From positions 1 to 43,920 of the forward strand of contig JAFRMM010000080.1 in the NCBI GenBank assembly GCA_017430675.1: a DNA stretch of 43,920 nt, in the 5' to 3' direction. A program made the translations under genes and the position numbers. Positions 16,259-27,136 of this stretch are shown piece by piece. Source of the stretch: Prevotella sp. (GTDB lineage: Bacteria > Bacteroidota > Bacteroidia > Bacteroidales > Bacteroidaceae). A model generated the notes under the pieces. That model saw only the letters and a program-made list of their open reading frames with translations. It made no database searches and was not told the DNA's origin. Positions within the stretch are counted from its first letter, which is position 1, and every line of letters begins with the position of its first letter.

Positions 16259-17271
16259 AGATACTCATCATCGGAGGAACAGGCACAATCAGCAGTGCCA
16301 TCACCAGACAGTTAGCAGCCAGCGGCCACGACCTGTGGCTGTTGAATCGCGGCACGCGTAAAAGCGAGGTGCCCGCCAGTGTAAACCAAGTCATCTGCGA
16401 CATCGACGACGAGGCAGAGGTGCTGCGCCAGACAGGCAACGAACAGTTCGATGCCGTCTGCGAGTTCATCGGCTTCCTGCCCTCGCAGGTGGAGCGCGAC
16501 ATCCGGCTCTTCAAGGGGCGCACCCGCCAGTATGTCTATATCAGTTCGGCCTCGGCCTACAACAAGCCAGCCGCCAGCCACTTCATCACGGAGGGGACGG
16601 CCCTCGCCAACCCCTACTGGGAGTATTCGCGCAACAAGATCGCCTGTGAGGAACTGCTGATGCACGAGTACCGCGACAACGGCTTCCCTGTCACCATCAT
16701 CCGTCCCAGCCATACCTATTGCGAACGGGGCGTGCCCGTGAGTGTGCATGGTCCGAAAGGCAGTTGGCAGGTGCTGAAACGTATGATGGCGGGTAAGCCC
16801 GTACTGGTGCATGGCGATGGCAGTTCGCTCTGGACACTGACATGGAACGAGGACTTTGCCCGTGGTTTCATCGGTCTGCTGGGCAATCCCAAGGCCATCG
16901 GCGAGGCCTTCCAGATCATGAGCGACGAGCAACTGACATGGAACCAGATCTACCAGTGTGTCGCCAATGCCCTGGGCGTGGAGTTCCGACCGTATTATGT
17001 CGCCTCAGAGTTCCTCGCCGCCACCTCACCCAAGGAGTGGGACTTCACGGGTAATCTCCTGGGCGACAAGGCTGTCACCGTCGTCTTCGACTGCACGAAA
17101 CTGAAACATGCCGTACCAGGTTTCCAGACCACCGTCCGTTTCGACGAGGGTGTCCGCCGCTGCGTCGCCTACCTGAAGGAGCATCCTGAACTGCAGACGG
17201 AAGATCCTGAGTTCGATGCCTGGTGCGACCGTGTCATCGCCGCCCAGGAACAAGCCAGGAAATCCCTATAG
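16255..17271 (+). CDS. NAD-dependent epimerase/dehydratase (extended SDR family)
   Basis: A 338-aa Rossmann-fold protein. The start is the ATG at 16255, which overlaps the dehydrogenase stop. The N-terminal motif MKILIIGGTGTISSAITRQL is the GxxGxxS/G dinucleotide-binding loop. YVYISSASAYNKP and YSRNKIACEELL supply the Ser and the Tyr-x-x-x-Lys catalytic residues of extended SDRs. PVTIIRPSHTYCERGVP continues the fold. The C-terminal half resembles sugar-nucleotide epimerases of the atypical (CSP41/3-beta-HSD-like) group. The substrate is unknown. It ends the operon before a strong terminator. Confidence 0.9.
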   Translation: MKILIIGGTGTISSAITRQLAASGHDLWLLNRGTRKSEVPASVNQVICDIDDEAEVLRQTGNEQFDAVCEFIGFLPSQVERDIRLFKGRTRQYVYISSASAYNKPAASHFITEGTALANPYWEYSRNKIACEELLMHEYRDNGFPVTIIRPSHTYCERGVPVSVHGPKGSWQVLKRMMAGKPVLVHGDGSSLWTLTWNEDFARGFIGLLGNPKAIGEAFQIMSDEQLTWNQIYQCVANALGVEFRPYYVASEFLAATSPKEWDFTGNLLGDKAVTVVFDCTKLKHAVPGFQTTVRFDEGVRRCVAYLKEHPELQTEDPEFDAWCDRVIAAQEQARKSL

Positions 17272-17296
17272 AATCATCATTTTAAAAATCCATTCA

Positions 17297-17352
17297 CCTT
17301 TCAGCCGAGCGCTTACCTGCTGAGTATCAAGCAGTTCGGCTGAAAGGTCTTT
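17297..17352 (+). terminator. Rho-independent terminator after epimerase
   Basis: A perfect 12-bp stem (17297-17308 with 17336-17347) encloses a 27-nt loop that holds a further small hairpin (17317-17320 with 17331-17334). It is followed directly by a run of T (tctttttt). It closes the 14-17 kb operon and marks the left boundary of the AT-rich island. Confidence 0.85.
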
Positions 17353-17363
17353 TTTGCGCCACT

Positions 17364-17479
17364 ATAGTTGTCAAACTACATACCCTCCTTTCCTAACGAC
17401 CTACATTATAGTAATTTGACAATTGTCAAACAATCGTTTGACAGTTGTAATTTAATCGTTTGACAATTGTCAAACGATT
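17364..17479. repeat. Cluster of TTTGACAATTGTCAAA palindromes
   Basis: A perfect 16-bp palindrome TTTGACAATTGTCAAA is at 17415-17430. A perfect 26-bp palindrome with the same core flanked by AATCG/CGATT is at 17454-17479. Two partial copies lie around 17366-17376 (GTTGTCAAAC) and 17434-17447 (GTTTGACAGTTG). All are within 120 bases upstream of the first DUF1016 gene. A related half-site with GTTTGACAATTG occurs at 40372-40383. The arrangement suits an operator array or a small palindromic repeat family. Confidence 0.75.
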
Positions 17480-17611
17480 ATAACTCAATCCCAAAGGAAT
17501 GCCATCCAGTACGACAGGATAATAACACCTTCAAACAACATTATTACATGCTACTTGCTTCTTTATTGCCATTTTTCCGCTAAAAATATCCGGTGTTCAA
17601 AAAGATTTATG

Positions 17612-17619
17612 TAAATTTG
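17612..17619 (+). promoter_or_regulatory. -7 promoter box for first DUF1016 gene
   Basis: TAAATTTG matches TAnnTTTG and lies 43 bases before the ATG at 17663. No -33 TTTG at the usual distance, which would fit activator dependence, perhaps through the palindrome cluster just upstream. Confidence 0.45.
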
Positions 17620-17662
17620 CATCGTAAAACAAAGAACGATATGAATAACAAAGAACTGAGAC

Positions 17663-18673
17663 ATGAACGACATTCAGAACATAGACAAACAGCATAACAT
17701 GGAGCAACTCTATGCCAGCGTAAAGGAAATCCTTGCCACAGCCAGAAAAAGGGCCTATAGTGCAGTGAACTTCGCTATGGTGGAAAGTTACTGGCTCATT
17801 GGTCAGCAAATTGTTGAACATGAGCAACATGGCGAGGCAAGGGCTGACTATGGCAAGGGACTATTGAAGGATTTGGCAGCAAGACTGACCATAGACTTTG
17901 GAAAAGGATTTGACGAGCGTGAACTACGAAAAATGCGCCAGTTTTACCAGACATTTCAAAAACGGGACACACTGCGTCCCGAATTGACTTGGTCACACTA
18001 TCGACGCCTGATTAGCGTGGAAGACGAGAAGGCTCGACTGTGGTATATGAACGAAGCAGCAGACAGTGTCTGGAGCACCAGACAGATGGATCGTCAGATA
18101 TCCACGCTCTACTATGAGCGTCTTCTTGCCAGCAGAGAAAAAGAGTCGGTTGTGGCTGAAGCCGAAGAGAAACTTAAAGATGTTGCCCCCGCTCAGTTCA
18201 TCCATGATCCGTTTGTGCTGGAGTTCCTTGACTTGAAGGATTATCCTGCCCTGCATGAGAGTGACATTGAGCAGGCACTTATTGACCACCTGCAACAGTT
18301 CTTGTTGGAATTGGGACGCGGGTTCTGCTTTGTGGGCCGTCAGCGTAGAATGCGCTATGACGATGAAGACTTCTATGTAGATTTGGTCTTCTATCACAGC
18401 ATCCTGAAATGTCATGTGCTGATTGACTTGAAACTTGGAAAACTGACACATGAGGATGTAGGTCAGATGGATAGTTATATCCGCATGTGGGACTCACTCT
18501 ATAAGAATGAAGACGACAACCCTACACTGGGCATCATCCTATGTTCACAGAAGAGCGAGGCCATCGTGAAATACTCTGTACTGAACGAAGGCAAGCAACT
18601 CTTCGCCTCTCGCTATAAGTTGTACCTGCCTACCGAAGAAGAGTTCAAACACATGTTGGAGTCAATAGAATGA
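17663..18673 (+). CDS. DUF1016 / YhcG-family PDDEXK nuclease (first copy)
   Basis: A 336-aa protein with the two-part YhcG layout. The N-terminal helical domain (residues about 8-150) has the family sequence YSAVNFAMVESYWLIGQQIVEHEQ and DERELRKMRQFYQTF. The C-terminal PDDEXK nuclease domain (about 180-330) has FYVDLVFYHSILKCHVLIDLKLGKL: the Asp is in YVDL, and the catalytic E-x-K position reads Asp-Leu-Lys. This IDLK form is one of two usual variants; the second copy in this window has ELK. YhcG proteins are common in defence and mobile regions of Bacteroidales, often beside type I restriction genes; none is present here. The start could also be the Met at 17699. A 42-codon frame overlaps its stop. 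Confidence 0.88.
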   Translation: MNDIQNIDKQHNMEQLYASVKEILATARKRAYSAVNFAMVESYWLIGQQIVEHEQHGEARADYGKGLLKDLAARLTIDFGKGFDERELRKMRQFYQTFQKRDTLRPELTWSHYRRLISVEDEKARLWYMNEAADSVWSTRQMDRQISTLYYERLLASREKESVVAEAEEKLKDVAPAQFIHDPFVLEFLDLKDYPALHESDIEQALIDHLQQFLLELGRGFCFVGRQRRMRYDDEDFYVDLVFYHSILKCHVLIDLKLGKLTHEDVGQMDSYIRMWDSLYKNEDDNPTLGIILCSQKSEAIVKYSVLNEGKQLFASRYKLYLPTEEEFKHMLESIE

Positions 18674-18798
18674 ATGGTGCGAAGAAACACATCGCCCCCA
18701 GTTTCCACAAGGATTGGGTGAAGCGTCGGACTGTGGATGTGATGGAATTAAGAAAGAATCAAACACCTGGAACCGTTGTGTTCATACAAAGAGAATAG
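18670..18798 (+). CDS. Possible small protein coupled to DUF1016 gene (42 aa)
   Basis: A 42-codon frame starts at an ATG that overlaps the DUF1016 stop (ATGA) and ends at TAG. It is basic (KKHIAPSFHKDWVKRR) with no transmembrane segment. The stop/start overlap is what coupled translation would look like, but the frame is short and I know of no family. It may be a remnant of a longer gene. Confidence 0.3.
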   Translation: MNGAKKHIAPSFHKDWVKRRTVDVMELRKNQTPGTVVFIQRE

Positions 18799-18831
18799 TT
18801 ACAATCCGTCAATAATTTATGAAGAAATAGT

Positions 18832-18995
18832 ATGGCATACAATTTAGATAAGAAAGTGGTAAAGATGCACGTAAAGCAGCAAAAACCGTGTTCAACATTG
18901 GAGGAGCATTACTTGGATGTTTTCTTGGTTCAAATTCATCCTATAGGAGACCCAAGTCTTCAGGATTAAGAAGGAAAAGGCCTAAGAGATGGTAG
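18832..18995 (+). pseudogene. Frameshifted small membrane-associated protein
   Basis: The frame from the ATG at 18832 reads MAYNLDKKV and then continues as an unconvincing peptide to a stop at 18967. The -1 frame taken from position 18858 instead gives GKDARKAAKTVFNIGGALLG and then CFLGS followed by a very basic tail (RRKRPKRW) ending at 18995. The joined product, about 54 aa, has one glycine-rich hydrophobic stretch and a basic tail and looks like a real small protein. The break falls at GTGGTAAAG, where loss of one G from a GGG run would explain it. This is a likely frameshift or a sequence error. Confidence 0.45.
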
Positions 18996-19051
18996 TAAAT
19001 ATGACAAAATGTAGAATTTTTATTTGTTTTTAATAGTTTTTTGTAGAAAAG

Positions 19052-19083
19052 TTTGTAGGCTCATAGTTTTCTCACTATTTTTG
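19052..19083 (+). promoter_or_regulatory. Promoter of the island operon
   Basis: TTTG at 19052-19055 and TATTTTTG at 19076-19083 are 20 bases apart, the ideal Bacteroidetes -33/-7 arrangement. The first gene starts at 19109, so the leader is about 20 nt. No other good promoter is seen until after the island genes, which supports one transcript. Confidence 0.75.
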
Positions 19084-19108
19084 CAGGTGAATATTAAATT
19101 TTACTATT

Positions 19109-19297
19109 ATGACAGAAGCATTTAAAATGATTATTGAGCAAGCCAAAGAAAATGGCACGTATGAACAACTTATGTCAGTGGTTCGGGGATATGAACAGAC
19201 TCACACTGCTGGGATTCCTAATTCTTTCATTCTTAGCAAGGATCAGGAACGAATATTAAGGGCCCAATTGGAGGATGAGTCTAAAAATGACAAGTAA
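19109..19297 (+). CDS. Small hypothetical protein, 62 aa
   Basis: A 62-aa soluble, helical protein (MTEAFKMIIEQAKENGTYEQ...) with acidic/lysine-rich ends and no signal peptide or membrane segment. I do not recognise a family. It directly follows a strong promoter and is only 5 bases before the DUF2971 gene, so it is the first gene of the island operon. The size and position would fit a small regulator, an antitoxin or an accessory subunit, but nothing in the sequence proves any of these. Confidence 0.7.
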   Translation: MTEAFKMIIEQAKENGTYEQLMSVVRGYEQTHTAGIPNSFILSKDQERILRAQLEDESKNDK

Positions 19298-19302
19298 AAA
19301 AT

Positions 19303-20127
19303 ATGATGGAGAATAAAGAAATACCAGACATCTTATATCATTACACTCTCCTTGAGAATCTACAGAACATCATTCGAGCAGGTAAAACAGGAGCAGAACT
19401 TGTATTTTGGCTAACACATTTCAGGCAACTCAATGATGCTGAAGAGGGGGCTGCATTGGATAAGACAATTGCTGATTTGTGTCCGGAATGGGGTATCAAC
19501 CCCATACCAGATATGTATGTATTATCTTTATGTGGAAGCAAAGAGAATCTTCCTCTTTGGAAAGAATATGCCAACGATGCTAAAGGGATTGTCATTGCTC
19601 TTGATAGCAATATTATCATAAACAACACGTTAGACTTTCGCAAAGAAATAGTTAAATGCGAATATGGTGAGACAGAGAACCTAAAAGCTATACGACAAAG
19701 CATAAAAGACTTGGATAAATATATTGAGTCAGATGAAGGTAAAGTTCGGATAGAAAACATGTTCAATTATGAGCGTTACCCAGAATTGCGTAATAATCCT
19801 CATAAAAGATGGATTTTGAAAATGGGCGAAATAAGAAAGTACTTTAAGCCATTATTAGCTTTTAAAGCCCCTTGCTATTATTATGAAGATGAGTATCGTT
19901 TAACTGTAGATGGTTATAATGCAGAACGAATCAAATACCATGTAAAGGACGACAGACTTATTGAGTATAGAGAATATCACATTGACATAAAGGCACTTAA
20001 AGGAATTTATATAGGTTCAAACAACACAGAAGAAACGACAGAATATGTACGTCGTTATATTATGAATCTCGCACTTAAACAAAATATTGATGTTGAGAGA
20101 ATTAAATTACCATATAGAACATATTAA
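19303..20127 (+). CDS. DUF2971 domain protein
   Basis: A 274-aa cytoplasmic protein. The N-terminal sequence ILYHYTLLENLQNIIRAG followed by LVFWLTHFRQLNDAEEG is the typical opening of DUF2971 (PF11185). VLSLCGSKENLPLWKEYANDAKGIVIALD is the family's central motif, and the C-terminus (ALKGIYIGSNNTEETTEYVRR) also fits. The family's activity is not established; the Y-H-Y-T opening recalls ADP-ribosyltransferase-like folds and it is common in accessory islands. Start could be the first or second of two adjacent ATGs. It lies between the small protein and the paralogue array. Confidence 0.8.
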   Translation: MMENKEIPDILYHYTLLENLQNIIRAGKTGAELVFWLTHFRQLNDAEEGAALDKTIADLCPEWGINPIPDMYVLSLCGSKENLPLWKEYANDAKGIVIALDSNIIINNTLDFRKEIVKCEYGETENLKAIRQSIKDLDKYIESDEGKVRIENMFNYERYPELRNNPHKRWILKMGEIRKYFKPLLAFKAPCYYYEDEYRLTVDGYNAERIKYHVKDDRLIEYREYHIDIKALKGIYIGSNNTEETTEYVRRYIMNLALKQNIDVERIKLPYRTY

Positions 20128-20139
20128 AAATATTCAAAT

Positions 20140-20799
20140 ATGAATGATGTTTTTATTCTTCAAAGTTTGATGGAATCTTTTGATATACTAAAGAATTCAT
20201 GGAATAGCAAAAGGGAGACTATAATAAATTGCATCGTCGAAACAGGTATTTACGATGGTGAAACTGCTATGAATATGTGGTTATATATACTGCAAAATAA
20301 TAAAAACAAATTGAAAAATAAAGAAACAGCAGAAGCATGTATAAATGAAGTATTGAATAGATTTCACGATAAGCATAAGTTTTATGGTTCTGAATACGAT
20401 TATAGAGCAATATTAGAATATGTTGCGCCTTATATTGCTAATAACAATCAAATAATCGAATTAATATTCGGATGTGCATATAATGCAGGTGATAGGAAAA
20501 GTAGTATTTGGGAGAATTTGATACCAGCTTGCATAGCGGGTATTATATTGCAGAAGAAACCTCATGCTGTTAAATCCCTAATCCTTTCATTGTCTCGTAA
20601 TATGTATCTAATTGATACGACAATTGGCGATTTATTAAGGAGGGCTTTGGAATTCATCGATAGGACATCTATGAATTCTGAATTAAATGATGAATATTTT
20701 GTAACACCAGATGTTAAAGACACTTTGCTCACAAGTATAGGGGCTCTAAATAGTGCAGAAGAACGTGCTGACTGCATGGTCACCATCCTTTCTTTGTAG
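20140..20799 (+). CDS. Unknown helical protein, tandem paralogue A
   Basis: A 219-aa, predicted all-helical soluble protein with no signal peptide and no family I recognise. It shares a scaffold with the next two genes: an N-terminal SFDILKNSW, then ETAMNMWLYIL near residue 42, then IIELIFGCAYNAGDRKSSIW in the middle. IGDLLRRALEF follows, and it ends in VKDTLLTSIGALNSAEERADCMVTI. It lies 12 bases after the DUF2971 gene. Base composition is strikingly AT-rich compared with the flanking chromosome, a sign of recent transfer. Confidence 0.75.
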   Translation: MNDVFILQSLMESFDILKNSWNSKRETIINCIVETGIYDGETAMNMWLYILQNNKNKLKNKETAEACINEVLNRFHDKHKFYGSEYDYRAILEYVAPYIANNNQIIELIFGCAYNAGDRKSSIWENLIPACIAGIILQKKPHAVKSLILSLSRNMYLIDTTIGDLLRRALEFIDRTSMNSELNDEYFVTPDVKDTLLTSIGALNSAEERADCMVTILSL

Positions 20800-20825
20800 A
20801 CCAATGTAAGATTCCTCTTAGAAAT

Positions 20826-21506
20826 ATGAATACAGAATTAATAAAGAAAAATCTGGCTGATTCTTTTGATGTATTAAAAGACTCTTGGGAACAATATTGT
20901 GATGCCATTACACTTTGTATTGCCGAGATGATGAAATATGACGGAGAAATGGCTATAGAAATGTGGCTTTATATACTTGAAAAGAACAAAGCATTACTCG
21001 CATCAGATATTGGGACAAAGAAATTGATTCCTGAAATCATTGATAAAATGTACCATATAAGATACGATTATCTTTCACGCAGGGAAGAGATTTTCTTAAA
21101 TGAGATAATTCCTTGTATGCTACACAGAGAGGAAATATTAACTTTTATTTTTGGAAAAGCTCACTGTGCAGGTGCTGAAAAAGATGATATTTTTGGAACG
21201 ACTCTTTTATGTTTTGCATATATATTACTCATCGGAAATAACGAGGTCGTGATGCGAATTATGGAATCTTTATATTCAAATAAAAGAATGATAGGATTGA
21301 GCACAGGTGAGTTTTTATATCAAGCCACAGAGTTATTAAAAGACATGTTTTCTGACAAAGACATCCCCTACGATTCATTAGGACTAGACAAGAGGGATAC
21401 TTTAATGCGTAGTTTGGATTATATTAATGATCCCCTACTAAAAGCAGAATGTACCGTATCAATAATTACACTTATTCAATTATGTACAGACAAGAATACT
21501 TATTAA
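20826..21506 (+). CDS. Unknown helical protein, tandem paralogue B
   Basis: A 226-aa paralogue of the preceding gene: SFDVLKDSW, EMAIEMWLYILEKNK, EILTFIFGKAHCAGAEKDDIF, STGEFLYQATELLKD and KRDTLMRSLDYINDPLLKAECTVSI align in the same order and at the same spacing. Identity looks like roughly a quarter to a third by eye. No catalytic motif is evident. The 3' end overlaps the start of paralogue C by 25 bases. Function unknown. Tandem diverged small proteins of this kind can be immunity proteins, multimer subunits or recognition variants. Confidence 0.75.
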   Translation: MNTELIKKNLADSFDVLKDSWEQYCDAITLCIAEMMKYDGEMAIEMWLYILEKNKALLASDIGTKKLIPEIIDKMYHIRYDYLSRREEIFLNEIIPCMLHREEILTFIFGKAHCAGAEKDDIFGTTLLCFAYILLIGNNEVVMRIMESLYSNKRMIGLSTGEFLYQATELLKDMFSDKDIPYDSLGLDKRDTLMRSLDYINDPLLKAECTVSIITLIQLCTDKNTY

Positions 21507-22168
21507 AGCTCCAAACCTTGAAACGCATTGAAGAAGAAGCGCAAAATGTCATTGATATAGAAAAGACAAATCCTGAGCAGGCTTTTTCTATGTGGAGAGA
21601 TTTGTTATGTGATTATAGCGCATATCTTCATGATGAACAATATATTGAGATACTTATAGATAATCTTTTGTCCAACATCCGTGCTAATCATTGCAGATAT
21701 ATTGATAAGTACACGGATGGACAAATAATGATGGACCGTGTCATACCATATATGATTAAGTTTCCGGAAATACCCGAACTTATTTATCGCGTTTCGGGAA
21801 GAGCAGGATGCCCCAATGATTATTCTATATTTTCGGCTATATGTTTGGCATGTTTTATTGTCAGCAATCAAGCAGAAAATACATACAAGATTATAGAATT
21901 CCTATCAAAGAATAAGGATATTAAAGATATTAAACGTCAAGGACATGTTTTCAATTACATAAATTTTTCTGTTGGTAAGTTCTTAATCAAAACATATGAT
22001 TATGTGAACACATTGATCAATGAGAATGATGAGAAGAAATATAATGTTACAGACAATGTGAAACAGGCATTAATAAATAGTTTATATCTATTTGATGACA
22101 AAACTATTAAGGCTGAATGTATGATACCAATTATGGCGATAATAGGTTATGATTATAAAAAAGATTAG
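21482..22168 (+). CDS. Unknown helical protein, tandem paralogue C
   Basis: A 228-aa protein, third member of the array. The chosen start is the ATG at 21482 (MYRQEYLLKLQ); an in-frame ATG at 21449 would lengthen the overlap with gene B. It is the most diverged copy but keeps QAFSMWRDLL, PEIPELIYRVSGRAGCPNDYSIF and FSVGKFLIKTYDYVN. It also keeps the ending VKQALINSLYLFDDKTIKAECMIPIMAI, which matches gene B's ending closely. No signal peptide or membrane helix. About 80 bases of AT-rich sequence without a recognisable promoter separate it from the ATPase gene. Confidence 0.75.
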   Translation: MYRQEYLLKLQTLKRIEEEAQNVIDIEKTNPEQAFSMWRDLLCDYSAYLHDEQYIEILIDNLLSNIRANHCRYIDKYTDGQIMMDRVIPYMIKFPEIPELIYRVSGRAGCPNDYSIFSAICLACFIVSNQAENTYKIIEFLSKNKDIKDIKRQGHVFNYINFSVGKFLIKTYDYVNTLINENDEKKYNVTDNVKQALINSLYLFDDKTIKAECMIPIMAIIGYDYKKD

Positions 22169-22250
22169 TTTCTAATCTCAAATATAAAACCATATTTATG
22201 ATCAAAATTGCTATAGGATAAAATTATAGATACTTAATAATGAAAACAGT

Positions 22251-24305
22251 ATGATACAATCCACAATTCAGAATATCAACACTTCTTTTATTGCTGAGGC
22301 GAAGAACTCTCCTGCCTTGTTGGCAGATATGGCCGCTATGGAGAAATACATGTCGGAAAGCTACAGCGGACGTATCATTGTTGAATTGTTGCAAAATGCT
22401 GATGACGCCCATTCATCAAGAGTCTATATCACGGAGAAAGACGGTAATGTGATATTTGCCAATAATGGGCGTCCATTTAATGATGCAGACGTGATGGCTA
22501 TCTCGCGTTCTGGTGCCAGCGAGAAGAAAAGAGGTGAGACGATTGGCTATCGGGGAATAGGATTCAAGAGTACATCGTTTCTTTCATCAGAAATCATCAT
22601 ATATTCCAATGAAACGGCTTTCAGTTTTTCGAAAGCAAAGACAGCAGAGGCTCTTGGCGTGGACGAAGAGAATGTACCAACAATTCGCATACCTTTCTTG
22701 GTAGATGCTGCTCCTTATATAAACGTCATAGAGGAATTGTTGGATAATGGCTTTACTACTATTTTTATATTCAAATCTTCGAATAAGGAGGTGTTACAGG
22801 AAGAAATAGGGTTACTTAGTGCTGACCTGATGCTGTTCTTGCGTAATCTTAAGGAAATAGAAACTTCGAACATGGGCGAGGATAAACAACTTCGCGTGGT
22901 TAGAAAAACTAAAGATTGGGGACAGGAAATCACTATCGACAAGAACAAATGGGGGATGGTGGATGACTGTCTGGCATTCAAGATGGAAGATGATGAGTTT
23001 GTAAGGTGTGAGGCTGATGAGGCTGTCTATTACACCTTCCTGCCGACCTACGACAAAGCACCTTTCCTATTTAAGATGAATGGTGATTTCTCCACAGATC
23101 CTTCAAGGAAGCATTTACGTCAGGACGATACTACGCAGAAAACACTTGAGGCACTAGCCAAGACTATTGCGAATGTTATTGAGAAGGCTTTCAGGGAGCC
23201 GAGGCCAGTCTATCGCAATCTACTACAGTTGATAACTGATGGCACCTCATTCAGTACCGCCAACATGCAATTAAAAAAGTATCTAAAAAAGATTCTGAGC
23301 GAGAAGAAGATGCTAAGGTTCAACGACGGAACCACAGGTCGGCTTTCAGATTACAAATGCTTCCCTATTGGTTTTGAAAGCAGTGTGGCAAATATCGTTA
23401 GGAAGGAATCAGAGACCATCCGTAATCAGAGTCTTGCACCAGAGGTTTACGAGAATCTGAATGGTGTGGAGGAATTTATGGCTACATATAGCGACTCTGT
23501 CTTTAGTTCACAAGATATTGCTGATGTGTTGCAAGATAAGACCATGGTGGCTAATCTTTCAGAATATACATATTCTTATCTGTTGGGTAAAACGGTGCAG
23601 GCATATAATAGGAGTAAGTTAATGTCAACCAATGACCTTAACGTGTCTGACATACTTATTAAGAAGAAAGATGGTGCGGTGATACCGATAAGACAGAGCA
23701 ATATGAGTTCAAAGGATATAAGCAAACTGTTACAAGAGAATGACAGCAACCAGTCGCTAACAAATGTTGGATTGAAAGCATTCACCCAGGAACTTGGTTT
23801 GGAATATAAGGAAGATGATGGGTTCAAGTCGTTCCTCAATAGTTCAAAAGTCGTAGGCATAGAGGAAGGGAAAGAGCCTAAGGTGCCTGTTTTTTCGCCA
23901 AAGGCTGTTTTTAAGGCTTCTAAGCCTATCATCCCCAGATGGCGATCAGCAGAGAATGCTTGTGTAGAAATTGAGAAGTTTCTTGGTAATGAGGCCCGCG
24001 ATGTAAGCACTCAGAATCTTGGCTATGACGTGGAGAGTACTACGCCAACAGGAGAGAAACGATATATAGAAGTAAAGTCCGTTTCCAAATCGGACGGGTC
24101 TTTCTCACTTACCAACAATGAATATACGGCTGCCCATCAATATGGCGATGCTTACTATATCTGTCTGTTACATCATGGAGATGACAAGTCAAAAGCCATC
24201 TATATCCAGAATCCGCTTGGCAAATTGAAACTTGAAAAAAGAATCAGACAGTGGGAATGGTTCTGTGAGGAATATCAGGGCGAAGAAATTGAAATAGAGT
24301 ATTGA
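22251..24305 (+). CDS. HSP90-like ATPase with NO VEIN (DUF3883) C-terminal domain
   Basis: A 684-aa protein. Residues about 30-260 form a GHKL/sacsin-type ATPase: the N-box is VELLQNADDAH (Glu45, Asn49, Asp52), the ATP-lid region has NNGRPFNDADVMAISRSGAS, and the glycine motif is TIGYRGIGFKS (98-107). A middle helical region follows. The last 110 residues are a NOV_C/DUF3883 domain with a PDDEXK-like signature: GYDVES, then 12-13 residues on, YIEVKSVS (E606-V-K608), and then NEYTAAHQYGDAYYICLL. This pairing of domains occurs in bacterial defence-type islands and in plant NO VEIN. An ATP-gated nuclease role is inferred. The next gene starts one base after its stop. Confidence 0.85.
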   Translation: MIQSTIQNINTSFIAEAKNSPALLADMAAMEKYMSESYSGRIIVELLQNADDAHSSRVYITEKDGNVIFANNGRPFNDADVMAISRSGASEKKRGETIGYRGIGFKSTSFLSSEIIIYSNETAFSFSKAKTAEALGVDEENVPTIRIPFLVDAAPYINVIEELLDNGFTTIFIFKSSNKEVLQEEIGLLSADLMLFLRNLKEIETSNMGEDKQLRVVRKTKDWGQEITIDKNKWGMVDDCLAFKMEDDEFVRCEADEAVYYTFLPTYDKAPFLFKMNGDFSTDPSRKHLRQDDTTQKTLEALAKTIANVIEKAFREPRPVYRNLLQLITDGTSFSTANMQLKKYLKKILSEKKMLRFNDGTTGRLSDYKCFPIGFESSVANIVRKESETIRNQSLAPEVYENLNGVEEFMATYSDSVFSSQDIADVLQDKTMVANLSEYTYSYLLGKTVQAYNRSKLMSTNDLNVSDILIKKKDGAVIPIRQSNMSSKDISKLLQENDSNQSLTNVGLKAFTQELGLEYKEDDGFKSFLNSSKVVGIEEGKEPKVPVFSPKAVFKASKPIIPRWRSAENACVEIEKFLGNEARDVSTQNLGYDVESTTPTGEKRYIEVKSVSKSDGSFSLTNNEYTAAHQYGDAYYICLLHHGDDKSKAIYIQNPLGKLKLEKRIRQWEWFCEEYQGEEIEIEY

Positions 24306-24306
24306 T

Positions 24307-24885
24307 ATGAATTGTATAAATAAGAAAAAGATTAGTCTATACATTGGGCTGGCAACTGCCGCTATCCTTGGAATGTATTTTTTCATTTTCCACTATGAGC
24401 TTTCTTCCAACAGTAGTGATTGGGCCAATCTGGGCTCATATTTCAGTGGAATGTTACTACCCATCTTAACCTTTGTAAACATTCTTGTTTTCATAGAAAT
24501 ATCTATATGGCTATCTAAAGAAGATGGTAATAGAGCGTTACGTCAATTTCGCATTGATGAAATCAGAAGGCTGAATGACGAATTAGATAAAGCAATAGTT
24601 CCCGATACTTCAAGCGCTATAAGTATAAATGCAGCATCTGCGCCAATCGTGAGGGCAACTTGCTACATAGAGTCTTTTCTAAGAACAAAGTTGGCATTAT
24701 TCAATCTTGATGCAGACTCGAAAGAGACTGATGAAATCAAAAAACTCCATTCTTGTCTGATGGCTTTAGAAAAGGAGTTTGTTCAGCTAGAGAGCATGCC
24801 AATTTCTAACCAGACATTGAATAATATTCTCGATCAAAGAGCCACTGTCATAAATATTCTTCAAGACATAACATTATATAAGTGA
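24307..24885 (+). CDS. Small two-helix membrane protein, possible AbiC-like
   Basis: A 192-aa protein with two hydrophobic helices (about residues 10-29 and 47-68) joined by SSNSSDWANLGSYFSGM, and then a charged cytoplasmic helical domain (about 75-190) with coiled-coil character. The W-x-x-x-GSYFSG link between two helices recalls the N-terminus of putative phage abortive infection proteins (putAbiC), but the soluble part is shorter and the match is weak. It begins one base after the ATPase stop, so the two are almost certainly translated together. It could be the membrane effector or anchor of the ATPase. Confidence 0.65.
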   Translation: MNCINKKKISLYIGLATAAILGMYFFIFHYELSSNSSDWANLGSYFSGMLLPILTFVNILVFIEISIWLSKEDGNRALRQFRIDEIRRLNDELDKAIVPDTSSAISINAASAPIVRATCYIESFLRTKLALFNLDADSKETDEIKKLHSCLMALEKEFVQLESMPISNQTLNNILDQRATVINILQDITLYK

Positions 24886-24932
24886 GTAATTGCAGGTACG
24901 GTTGACTTTCCCTTCGGCCATCGAGCTAGACC

Positions 24933-24992
24933 TTCTCCTGATCCTTTTTAAAAGGACAATAGAACAAGAAACAAAAACGTTATATAAATATG
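24933..24992 (+). repeat. Direct repeat, left copy (leader of second DUF1016 gene)
   Basis: Begins with TTCTCCTGATC (24933-24943). It contains a 28-bp stretch (24956-24983) identical to 26031-26058, and ends at the ATG of the DUF1016 gene. In both copies the 28-bp stretch begins 34 bases before an ATG. It is a duplicated 5' leader. Confidence 0.85.
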
Positions 24993-26018
24993 GCAAACGA
25001 CATAGAGAAAATAAAGGTAGAACAATTTGCTGAGGTAGTCACGATGATTCAGCAGACGAAAGCCAGCGTGATCAGCATCGCGAACACTGCTTTGATCGAC
25101 CTGTACTGGAAAGTGGGCAAGTACATTTCAGAGAAACTCACTGTTTCTGAATGGGGCGATGGAGTGGTTAAGCAATTGGCTGAATACATTGAGAAGACAA
25201 GACCTGACGTAAAGGGCTTTTCTGACAAGAATCTGTGGCGCATGAAACAGTTTTATGAGACGTACTGCGATGCAAAAGAAAAACTCTCACCAGTGGTGAG
25301 ACAAATTAACTGGACAAATAATCTCATTATTCTGAGCCGTACGAAATCGGCAGAGGAACGAGAGTTCTACTTGATGCTATGTAAGAATGAACGCCTTTCA
25401 AAACGAGAGTTGAATAGACAGATAGATGCAGCCATGTATGAGCGTTCAAAATTGGAGGGGCCAAAACTCTCGCCAGTGGTGAGAGAAATTGCACCAAAGG
25501 CAGAACAGGTGTTCAGAGACCAGTACGTGCTGGAATTTCTTGGTGGCAAGGAGTATGAGCATGAAAACAGCATGAAGAAGGCTCTGATTGACCAGATGAA
25601 ACGATTCGTACTGGAAGTTGGCAAGGACTTCCTTTTTATGGAAGAGGAGTATCGCCTGCAGGTTGGAGATAGTGATTTTCGCATTGATCTGCTTTTCTAT
25701 CATAGGGAGTTGCAATGTCTGGTGGCCTTCGAACTGAAAATGGGAAAGTTCAAGCCTGAGCATTTAGGACAGTTGAACTTCTATCTGGAAGCCCTCGACA
25801 GGGATGTGAAGAAGCCGCATGAAAAACCAAGCATTGGTGTACTGCTCTGCAAGGATAAAGACGACGAGGTGGTGGAATATGCCTTGAGTCGTAGCCTCTC
25901 GCCAACGATGGTTGCAGAATACAAGTTACGTCTGCCGGATAAAGCCCTGCTTCAGCAGAAGTTGCGTGATATCTATGAATCGAGTGAAGGAGATGAAGGG
26001 GATCATGGGTTCTCCTGA
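24990..26018 (+). CDS. DUF1016 / YhcG-family PDDEXK nuclease (second copy)
   Basis: A 342-aa YhcG protein, clearly diverged from the copy at 17.7 kb. The helical domain has IANTALIDLYWKVGKYISEKL and GFSDKNLWRMKQFYETY, then the QINWTNNLIILSRTKSAEEREFYL motif. The C-terminal PDDEXK nuclease domain has DFRIDLLFYHRELQCLVAFELKMGKFKPEHLGQLNFYLEALD, with the canonical Asp and Glu-Leu-Lys. Gene and leader are bracketed by a direct repeat whose right copy precedes a different start codon. That suggests insertion as a unit ahead of a now-lost gene. No promoter of the usual type is seen in the 104 bases upstream. Confidence 0.9.
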   Translation: MANDIEKIKVEQFAEVVTMIQQTKASVISIANTALIDLYWKVGKYISEKLTVSEWGDGVVKQLAEYIEKTRPDVKGFSDKNLWRMKQFYETYCDAKEKLSPVVRQINWTNNLIILSRTKSAEEREFYLMLCKNERLSKRELNRQIDAAMYERSKLEGPKLSPVVREIAPKAEQVFRDQYVLEFLGGKEYEHENSMKKALIDQMKRFVLEVGKDFLFMEEEYRLQVGDSDFRIDLLFYHRELQCLVAFELKMGKFKPEHLGQLNFYLEALDRDVKKPHEKPSIGVLLCKDKDDEVVEYALSRSLSPTMVAEYKLRLPDKALLQQKLRDIYESSEGDEGDHGFS

Positions 26019-26067
26019 TCTGTTTTTCAAACAATAGAACAAGAAACAAAAACGTTATTAAGATATG
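26010..26067 (+). repeat. Direct repeat, right copy
   Basis: Starts with TTCTCCTGATC (26010-26020) overlapping the last codons of the DUF1016 gene. It has the identical 28-bp stretch at 26031-26058 and ends at an ATG (26065). The spacing from repeat to ATG is the same as in the left copy, 1075 bases away. Confidence 0.85.
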
Positions 26068-26163
26068 ACGAGTGAAGAATTATGGGAACTAATTAAGTGG
26101 CAACTGAAGCAAGTATCTTTGCACCATAATAACCAACATACAAAGTTAAATGAAGATGAATGA
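26065..26163 (+). pseudogene. Remnant 5' end of a lost gene (32 codons)
   Basis: An ATG preceded by the duplicated leader opens a 32-codon frame beginning MTSEELWELIKWQLKQ. It runs through a promoter for the next gene and ends inside that gene's start. The leader plus plausible helical N-terminus suggest the stump of a gene removed or replaced by recombination. It is too short to name. Confidence 0.35.
26114..26121 (+). promoter_or_regulatory. -7 promoter box for the oxidoreductase
   Basis: TATCTTTG fits TAnnTTTG exactly and lies 28 bases before the ATG at 26150. A -33 TTTG at 20-base spacing is absent, possibly because sequence upstream was replaced when the island arrived. Confidence 0.5.
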
Positions 26164-27136
26164 TGTTTTGCGTGTCGGCATTATCGGCACTGGATGGATC
26201 GCAGAGAAGGCGGCCATCACGTTAAACGGACTGACAGCGTGCGAGGCCTACGCTGTGGGGTCGAGAAAGAAAGAGACGGCAGAGGCTTTTGCCGCCAAGT
26301 GGAATATCCAGAAGGCTTATGGCAGTTATACGGAACTGATAGCCGATCCTTACGTGGATCTGGTCTATATCGGTACGCCCCATTCTCACCATTTCGACGT
26401 GACGAAGGAGGCGCTGATGGCTGGCAAGCCCTGTCTGGTGGAGAAGGCCTTCATGGCGAACTATCGTCAGGCGAAGGAGATCATCGACCTGGCTCATGAG
26501 AAGAAGGTGTTCCTGGCAGAAGCGATCTGGACACGCTACCAGCCCGTCGTCAAGATGATGCGCAACCTGATCAGTAGCGGACGTATCGGTGAGCCCCGTC
26601 TCTTGACGGCCACACTGGGCTACTCGATGGGTGACAAGCCACGTATCATGCGCCCAGATCTCTGTGGCGGTGCCCTACTCGACCTCGGCGTCTATGCCCT
26701 GAACTTCGCACGGATGTTCTTCCCAGCGGACATCGTGAGTATGGAGAGCCAGTGCGTGAAGTCGAAGACGGGCATGGACCTGACGAATGCCATCAGTCTG
26801 GTGCTCAGCGACGGCATGCTCTGCAACCTGCAGTCGAGTGCCCAGTGCGTGGGTGACAACATCGGTGTCATCGCTGGTACGGAGGGTAACCTGATCATCG
26901 ACAACATCAACAATCCGCAGAAGATCACAGTGAACGGCCCTGACCGTACCTATATCGAGACACTCCATGTGCCCCAGCAGATCACGGGCTACGAGTACCA
27001 GTTCCTGGCCTGTCGCCAGGCACTCATCGACGGTCTGCTGGAGCCTCGAGAGATGCCCCATGAGGAGACGCTCTATATCATGCGACTGATGGACACGCTC
27101 CGCGAGAAGTGGGACGTGCGCTATCCGATGGACTAA
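26150..27136 (+). CDS. Gfo/Idh/MocA-family oxidoreductase
   Basis: A 328-aa NAD(P)-dependent sugar dehydrogenase-type protein. The Rossmann motif VGIIGTGWIAEKAA is at residues 8-21. DLVYIGTPHSHHFDVTKEALMAGKPCLVEKAF (about 75-106) contains the family's G-T-P and the conserved E-K catalytic lysine motif. FLAEAIWTRYQPVV follows, then the C-terminal sheet domain with DLGVYALNFARMFF. The exact sugar substrate is unknown; close relatives act on inositols, glucose, xylose or anhydrosugars. It converges on the GH2 gene with only 7 bases between stops. The start could be the ATG at 26150 or 26156. Confidence 0.92.
   Translation: MKMNDVLRVGIIGTGWIAEKAAITLNGLTACEAYAVGSRKKETAEAFAAKWNIQKAYGSYTELIADPYVDLVYIGTPHSHHFDVTKEALMAGKPCLVEKAFMANYRQAKEIIDLAHEKKVFLAEAIWTRYQPVVKMMRNLISSGRIGEPRLLTATLGYSMGDKPRIMRPDLCGGALLDLGVYALNFARMFFPADIVSMESQCVKSKTGMDLTNAISLVLSDGMLCNLQSSAQCVGDNIGVIAGTEGNLIIDNINNPQKITVNGPDRTYIETLHVPQQITGYEYQFLACRQALIDGLLEPREMPHEETLYIMRLMDTLREKWDVRYPMD

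What the first reader, a model, noticed from the sequence alone, without database searches (positions are those of the whole stretch)
19052..24885. Candidate undescribed defence or immunity operon
One well-formed promoter (19052-19083) precedes seven tightly spaced genes in one direction. They are a 62-aa protein, a DUF2971 protein, three tandem paralogues of unknown family, an HSP90-like ATPase with NO VEIN nuclease-like domain, and a two-helix membrane protein. The set is AT-rich relative to its flanks and edged by DUF1016 nucleases, as in accessory defence islands. I know of no named system with this composition. ATPase plus nuclease-like domain plus membrane protein suggests a sensing/effector core, with the paralogues as recognition, regulatory or immunity subunits. 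The largest internal gap is about 80 bases, before 22251, so there could be two units.
Basis: partly seen in the sequence, partly recalled or inferred. Interest (0 to 1): 0.75.

Follow-up and report, generated by a model that had tools for sequence, protein, structure and literature searches.

The report
Nuclease-ATPase operon with swappable partner genes
A bacterium carries a probable anti-virus operon in which a conserved ATP-driven nuclease sits next to rapidly changing helper genes that seem to be exchanged between strains, which may be how its target recognition is changed.

Summary
In detail: one Bacteroidetes-type promoter (19052-19083) and seven co-directional genes with gaps of -25 to 82 bases, in a 38% GC island within 53% GC flanks, edged by two DUF1016 genes. 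The core is a pair. One member is a 684-aa sacsin-like GHKL ATPase with a C-terminal NO VEIN PD-ExK nuclease domain. The other is one to three copies of a helical protein that matched no curated family. In all five loci of this ATPase clade read (window, three genomes of the Prevotella family, one Planococcus plasmid) the two lie together. A sister ATPase clade (12 loci) has a different partner family directly upstream. Among window, L001 and L005 the ATPase is 88-91% identical, but the best-matching partners only 34-42%. Window-L001 DNA homology stops about 52 codons into the first partner gene and resumes at the ATPase. Other slots hold interchangeable genes: DUF2971 plus a two-helix protein here, AriA-AriB (PARIS) in one relative. 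Best reading: a modular anti-phage system in which the ATPase gates a nuclease and the partner supplies variable recognition. Defence itself is inferred, not shown. The core works like a known GHKL-nuclease protein (VcSduA); the diversifying partner appears new.

The parts
17663..18673 (+). DUF1016_N + YhcG PD-DExK gene (PADLOC PDC-S02), left edge of island
18831..19097 (+). 5' block shared with L005 and, from 18879, with L001: remnant of a 55-aa hydrophobic basic peptide gene (apparently frame-broken here, by eye) plus the promoter
   Evidence: blastn; peptide match in L001; open ORF in L004
19052..19083 (+). Bacteroidetes-type promoter TTTG-N20-TATTTTTG
19109..19297 (+). 62-aa orphan protein, first gene
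19303..20127 (+). DUF2971 protein (PADLOC PDC-S31 match), candidate accessory effector
20140..20799 (+). helical partner copy 1; about the first 51 codons conserved across loci, middle variable
20826..21506 (+). helical partner copy 2
21482..22168 (+). helical partner copy 3 (divergent type, overlaps copy 2 by 25 bases)
22251..24305 (+). core: sacsin-like GHKL ATPase (N-terminal) + middle region + NOV_C/DUF3883 PD-ExK nuclease domain (569-652); motif residues E45, N49, G73, G99/102/104, D593, E607, K609 intact
24307..24885 (+). 192-aa protein with two hydrophobic stretches (about 9-28 and 45-69), candidate membrane effector
24990..26018 (+). second DUF1016/YhcG gene, right edge of island

Best explanation
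A modular anti-phage (or anti-mobile-element) operon. The 684-aa protein is an ATP-gated nuclease: a GHKL/sacsin ATPase that probably dimerises on nucleotide binding (inferred), a clamp-like middle region (inferred), and a C-terminal PD-ExK nuclease that cuts DNA or RNA when released (inferred). The helical partners dock on it through their conserved N-terminal ~51 residues and C-terminal end, and use the fast-changing middle to recognise an invader or its inhibitor (inferred). One to three copies give parallel specificities (inferred). The partner is exchanged or diversified much faster than the ATPase (shown by sequence). DUF2971 and the two-helix membrane protein are an optional second arm, a toxin-like effector layer (inferred), in slots that other loci fill with AriA-AriB and other genes (shown).
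For: Pairing: paralogue hits in 2 of 398 genus genomes and 2 of 399 family genomes (three distinct genomes, G001, G363, G462) are the same genomes that hold the 76-89%-identical ATPase. Six contig lengths beyond the window's own are shared between the 72 partner and 120 listed ATPase proteins; all 7 fall in the 39 closest ATPases and 0 in the other 81 (2000 jittered sets: mean 0.42, maximum 4). A Planococcus plasmid has a 209-aa partner homologue (hhalign probability 95.1, E 3.3e-8; the two other upstream proteins as controls 0.4 and 1.3) overlapping the start of a 37%-identical ATPase that groups with this clade. The sister clade has its own upstream partner family in 12 of 12 loci. Hypervariability: ATPase/best-partner identities are 88/42, 89/34 and 91/34 for window-L001, window-L005 and L001-L005, while DUF2971 and the membrane protein are 84% and 82% in window-L001. 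DNA break points. Of 13 motif positions checked in 17 ATPases, 11 are invariant; D52 is N in one, and position 575 splits by clade. Known defence-type genes share the slots: AriA 6e-61, AriB 3e-97, AbiGi 1.3e-22, TIR effector 6.9e-8. VcSduA, a GHKL-PD-ExK protein, defends and needs both activities (PMC12137116, passages).
Confidence: 0.55

Rival explanations
1. Toxin-inhibitor reading: the ATPase-nuclease (or the DUF2971/membrane arm) is the toxic part and the helical paralogues are its inhibitors, released when a phage attacks.
For: Small proteins upstream of the nuclease in the same operon, several copies in tandem; toxin-like neighbours such as AriB and AbiGi in the same kind of slot.
Against: An inhibitor of an 88-91% conserved enzyme should not fall to 34-42% identity, unless only its conserved ends bind. 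The partner families of the two sister ATPase clades are not related by profile comparison (hhalign probability 0.3).
Confidence: 0.2
2. Cassette reading: the promoter block and ATPase are borders of an exchange hotspot and the genes between are independent small defence or selfish genes that only share a transcript.
For: Within the operon, window-L005 DNA homology is confined to the 5' block and the ATPase, while inner genes differ; a whole AriA-AriB pair sits inside L030.
Against: The partner family is present in every A-clade locus read and also in Planococcus, and the partner type follows the ATPase clade, which random cargo would not do.
Confidence: 0.15
3. Stress or chaperone-like operon: an Hsp90-like machine acting on the cell's own proteins or nucleic acids, without an immune role.
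For: Closest structural matches of the ATPase model are Hsp90/TRAP1 and sacsin.
Against: Low-GC island, patchy occurrence, defence-type genes in the same slots and an intact PD-ExK motif.
Confidence: 0.08

Closest known systems
VcSduA / Shedu type I-D (paraMORC3-like), GHKL ATPase + DUF4263 nuclease
   Same: N-terminal GHKL ATPase, modelled middle clamp, C-terminal PD-(D/E)xK nuclease in one protein; shown to defend, both activities required (PMC12137116, passages read)
   Different: Nuclease is NOV_C/DUF3883, not DUF4263; here a fast-changing partner recurs beside it and optional effector genes are present; in the passages read VcSduA acts as an independent system
Tiamat (PADLOC TmtA; equating the two names is recalled, not from a call)
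   Same: N-terminal ~450 residues match a TmtA profile (E 2.5e-64) and the C-terminal NOV_C matches another TmtA model
   Different: TmtA profiles are 1063-1782 positions long; this protein has 684 residues and lacks the long middle part; partner genes present
PARIS (AriA-AriB)
   Same: A relative locus (L030) carries AriA and AriB between partner and ATPase; sensor plus sequestered tRNase effector (PMC12409363, passages) is a model for a second arm
   Different: Neither gene is in the window operon
Type I restriction specificity subunits (recalled analogy)
   Same: Conserved enzyme with exchanged, variable recognition subunit
   Different: No methyltransferase or target-recognition domain among the operon's family hits; helical partner; GHKL rather than helicase motor

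Membership tests
Shedu type I-D / VcSduA | N-terminal GHKL ATPase with N, G1, G2 motifs | tested here: met
   E45, N49, G73, G99, G102, G104 in 17 of 17 sequences; sacsin/Hsp90/MORC/MutL fold matches. That these residues are the motifs is recalled
Shedu type I-D / VcSduA | DUF4263 nuclease domain | tested here: not met
   NOV_C (6.6e-18) found at the C-terminus; no DUF4263 at E<=1
Tiamat (TmtA) | full-length match to the long TmtA profile | tested here: not met
   best stretch 3-455 on profile 10-490 of 1538; 684 aa in all
Tiamat (TmtA) | TmtA-type N-terminal ATPase region | tested here: met
   E 2.5e-64
PARIS | AriA ATPase plus AriB Toprim/DUF4435 | tested here: not met
   no AriA or AriB hit among the window operon's proteins (only the listings of the two flanking DUF1016 genes were capped at 25); present in L030
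HEAT/ARM/TOG-like helical repeat proteins (partner fold) | superhelical alpha-repeat fold | tested here: inconclusive
Anti-phage defence system | protects against phage | not testable with these tools
   needs a plaque assay

The most novel reading that the evidence does not exclude
A previously undescribed class of bacterial immune locus built on a constant ATP-gated nuclease and an exchangeable, tandem-duplicating sensor subunit, two unrelated sensor families having been recruited by two sister ATPase clades, with a swappable effector slot that can take in whole systems such as PARIS; a bacterial counterpart of receptor diversification that crosses from Bacteroidota to Bacillota plasmids.
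Probability: 0.35. Interest if true: 0.82.

Novelty: new variant of a known kind. Interest (0 to 1): 0.64.

Why it matters
A GHKL-nuclease protein (VcSduA) is known to defend without a dedicated partner; how such enzymes tell friend from foe is open. Here the likely specificity part is a separate, fast-changing gene beside a nearly constant enzyme, so swapping one gene between two natural loci would test directly what determines target range. It also offers a marker pair (partner + NOV_C ATPase) for finding such loci, and a family of 72 proteins of which 71 have no precomputed Pfam domain.

Tried and rejected
Two transcription units split at the 82-base gap: not favoured, because L001 has 12 bases there and in L030 AriB overlaps the ATPase ORF. 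Prophage or phage origin: no phage-record match to the operon DNA or to partner copy 2; the ATPase as protein has 2 weak phage-record matches covering about 40%; IMG/VR scans with A2 and with the single ATPase found no relative, and with A5 five distant ATPases of 23-29% identity that were not followed. Plasmids: 31 records encode ATPase relatives, 1 of them over 80% of the query; only that one (Planococcus) was opened. Alpha-helical modules fused to some sister-clade partners as homologues of the window's paralogues: hhalign probability 0.1, rejected. Partner fold by Foldseek in PDB and BFVD: no match at E<=0.001; by sequence to PDB only hits at E 0.2-0.6; ATPase profile to PDB none at 0.01. 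RNA families: none at gathering score in 17000-27000; no tRNA in the window. The two-helix protein: only sub-threshold Pfam hits, two PHROGs of unknown function, no plasmid match.

Literature: searches for NO VEIN/sacsin/HATPase, DUF3883, GHKL/NOV, DUF2971, TmtA, Tiamat, sacsin/conflict, paraMORC. I saw listings (0 to 25 papers a search, several of them capped) and abstract beginnings; none described this gene pair. Passages were read in PMC3710099, PMC12137116, PMC13092281, PMC8195603, PMC12629846 and PMC12409363; term searches inside PMC10853773 and PMC12839542 gave nothing. PMC13092281 names HATPase in the legend of a figure of predicted, unvalidated systems (one passage seen); PMC10609329 mentions DUF3883 and was not opened. 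Subscription papers and preprints are mostly not held.

Limits of tests: the contig-length test uses only the longest contig of each cluster, so it can miss true pairs. The absence of correlation between ATPase and partner identity (Spearman -0.17, p 0.26, 45 pairs of 10 loci) uses non-independent pairs, and for the six contig-matched loci only one partner copy is visible; for the sister clade the correlation is positive (0.73, 55 pairs of 11 loci, near-duplicate L023 left out), although some pairs are also discordant (96/56, 95/63). Alignments used part of the hits: A2 34 of 72 partners, A3 66 of 72, A4 40 and A5 16 of 120 listed ATPases (of 1267 at E<=1e-60). The sister-clade partner family was grouped by single-linkage blastp at 1e-6.
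Full report
WHAT IS THERE. The window holds a low-GC island (0.383 for 17300-26100 against 0.530 elsewhere). The nine flanking genes that were checked look like ordinary chromosomal ones, such as an efflux pump, a glycoside hydrolase, a GMP synthase and sensor kinases. Inside the island, one promoter of Bacteroidetes type (TTTG-N20-TATTTTTG, 19052-19083; the consensus is recalled) precedes seven genes with gaps of 5, 12, 26, -25, 82 and 1 bases. DUF1016/YhcG nuclease genes stand at both edges. The promoter pattern is expected 0.064 times in that stretch and strand. It lies before the first gene in two related loci, L001 and L005; in L030 no such match precedes the first gene.

THE CORE PROTEIN. 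Gene 22251-24305 encodes 684 residues: a sacsin-like GHKL ATPase and a C-terminal NOV_C domain (6.6e-18). The model (mean pLDDT 84.1, pTM 0.68) matches Hsp90/TRAP1, sacsin SR1, MORC2 and MutL chains. Of 13 motif positions checked in 17 ATPases, 11 are invariant, among them E45, N49, G73, G99, G102, G104 and the nuclease residues D593, E607 and K609; D52 is N in one sequence and position 575 differs by clade. DUF3883 (the older name of NOV_C, recalled) was called a novel REase domain by Anantharaman et al. (PMC3710099, passages).

THE PARTNERS. The three paralogues are 35, 24 and 25% identical to one another. A profile of them finds 72 proteins, 71 without any precomputed Pfam domain. The model of copy 1, from 66 of these 72 (six fragments or odd lengths left out), is confident and all-alpha (pLDDT 93.3). 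It resembles HEAT/ARM/TOG repeats only at the level that helical repeats commonly reach. Conservation is concentrated in residues 1-50 and at the C-terminal end; the middle is variable.

THE PAIR RECURS. In samples of 398 genus and 399 family genomes (centre G001, the genome of L001, a Prevotella MAG), the partner is found in 2 and 2 genomes (G001+G363; G001+G462). In the same samples these are exactly the genomes that hold an ATPase of 76-89% identity to the window's. The loci are L001, L005 and L030 with 2, 1 and 1 partner copies. An order-wide sample of 393 gave an ATPase at E<=1e-60 only in G001. Among the protein-collection hits, seven contig lengths, one of them the window's own, are shared by partner and ATPase lists; all lie in the closest 39 of 120 ATPases. 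On a plasmid of Planococcus lenghuensis (Bacillota), a 37%-identical ATPase gene overlaps the end of a gene for a 209-aa protein that matches the partner profile (hhalign probability 95.1, E 3.3e-8, 184 columns; the two other upstream proteins as controls 0.4 and 1.3). It is also the only hmmsearch hit among 108 open frames of that stretch (1.9e-8 at a database size set to one million). That ATPase groups with the window clade with support 1.0.

A SISTER CLADE WITH ANOTHER PARTNER. The other 12 ATPases found in these samples (29-31% to the window's by blastp) all have a second partner family directly upstream: by mechanical ORF ends, 11 overlap the ATPase by four bases and one (L020) is adjacent (12 of 12; L022 and L023 are near-identical). 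Profile comparison of the two partner families gives probability 0.3. Copies are doubled in L024 and L019. Here too the ATPase can be 95-96% identical while the partners are 56-63%, although over 55 pairs the two identities correlate (0.73). Partner type follows ATPase clade, and none of these 12 genomes had the window-type partner.

PARTNERS CHANGE MUCH FASTER THAN THE ENZYME. Window-L001: ATPase 88, DUF2971 84, membrane protein 82, best partner pair 42%. Window-L005: ATPase 89, partner 34. L001-L005: 91 and 34. At DNA level, window and L001 match without a break from 18879 to 20295, that is through DUF2971 and about 52 codons of partner copy 1; the long match returns at 22273, codon 8 of the ATPase, and runs to 24888, with only short patches of 70-72% between. 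Window and L005 match at 18831-19097 and 22239-24308, plus one 101-base patch in the flanking DUF1016 gene. Window and L030 match at 20129-20286 (start of the partner) and 22268-24308. Residues 1-51 of copies 1 and 2 are 43-65% identical to those of the partners in L001, L005 and L030, residues 52-189 only 18-33%. Copy 3 is the exception, with 19-28% also in residues 1-51, so it may dock differently or do something else.

WHAT FILLS THE OTHER SLOTS. Window and L001: 62-aa gene, DUF2971 and two-helix protein. L005: a 122-aa and a 380-aa gene without family. L030: AriA and AriB of PARIS between partner and ATPase (AriA 6e-61, AriB 3e-97). Sister clade: AbiGi (L020), TIR/deoxyribosyltransferase-like (L019), DUF2971 (L022, L024) and a 26%-identical relative of the two-helix protein (L021). 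DUF1016 genes follow in L001, L005, L018 and L019.

HOW IT PROBABLY WORKS. Shown: conserved ATPase and nuclease motifs, recurrent upstream partner, fast partner change, exchangeable neighbours. Inferred: the GHKL part dimerises and clamps a substrate with ATP; the partner docks by its conserved ends and senses an invader with its middle; this licenses the PD-ExK domain to cut; DUF2971 and the membrane protein give a second arm. VcSduA, a GHKL-PD-ExK protein, gives the precedent: changing either active site abolished defence (PMC12137116, passages). A toxin-inhibitor role of the partner is the main rival.

KNOWN OR NEW. It is not Shedu by domain (no DUF4263), not a full Tiamat (684 aa against profiles of 1063-1782; that TmtA is Tiamat is recalled) and not PARIS. 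It works like a GHKL-gated nuclease system but adds a diversifying partner. The listings of ten searches of the open-access library, several capped, showed no description of this pair.

Noticed in passing
L030 (G462 contig 243) 3114-4834: AriA-AriB (PARIS) pair lies inside the operon between the helical partner and the NOV_C ATPase, AriB overlapping the ATPase ORF.
   Followed up: partly
window 18831-19000; L005 243-410; L001 7068-7355: A small basic peptide with a glycine-rich hydrophobic stretch (55 aa in L005) sits before the promoter in three loci; it looks frame-broken in the window (by eye) and is joined in frame to what looks like the start of an XRE-type regulator in L001.
   Followed up: partly
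L017-L024, L031-L034: Sister ATPase clade has its own upstream partner family (mostly 230-300 aa; five members scanned, none above a Pfam cut-off), sometimes fused to helical modules (L018, L019, L033); in 4 of 5 pairs compared the N-terminal half is the less conserved.
   Followed up: partly
L041 4732-6996 (Planococcus plasmid): Two further genes precede the partner homologue there; one has a weak AbiJ N-terminal match (9.3e-5, below the curated cut-off).
   Followed up: no
L022 2598-3332, L024 10411-11163: DUF2971 proteins show weak N-terminal matches to an ADP-ribosyltransferase toxin family (Tox-ART-HYD1, 0.0022 and 0.05, below cut-off), hinting at the enzymatic class of DUF2971.
   Followed up: no
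window 17663-18673 and 24990-26018; L001, L005, L018, L019: DUF1016/YhcG genes repeatedly border these loci; whether they mark an integration hotspot was not tested.
   Followed up: no
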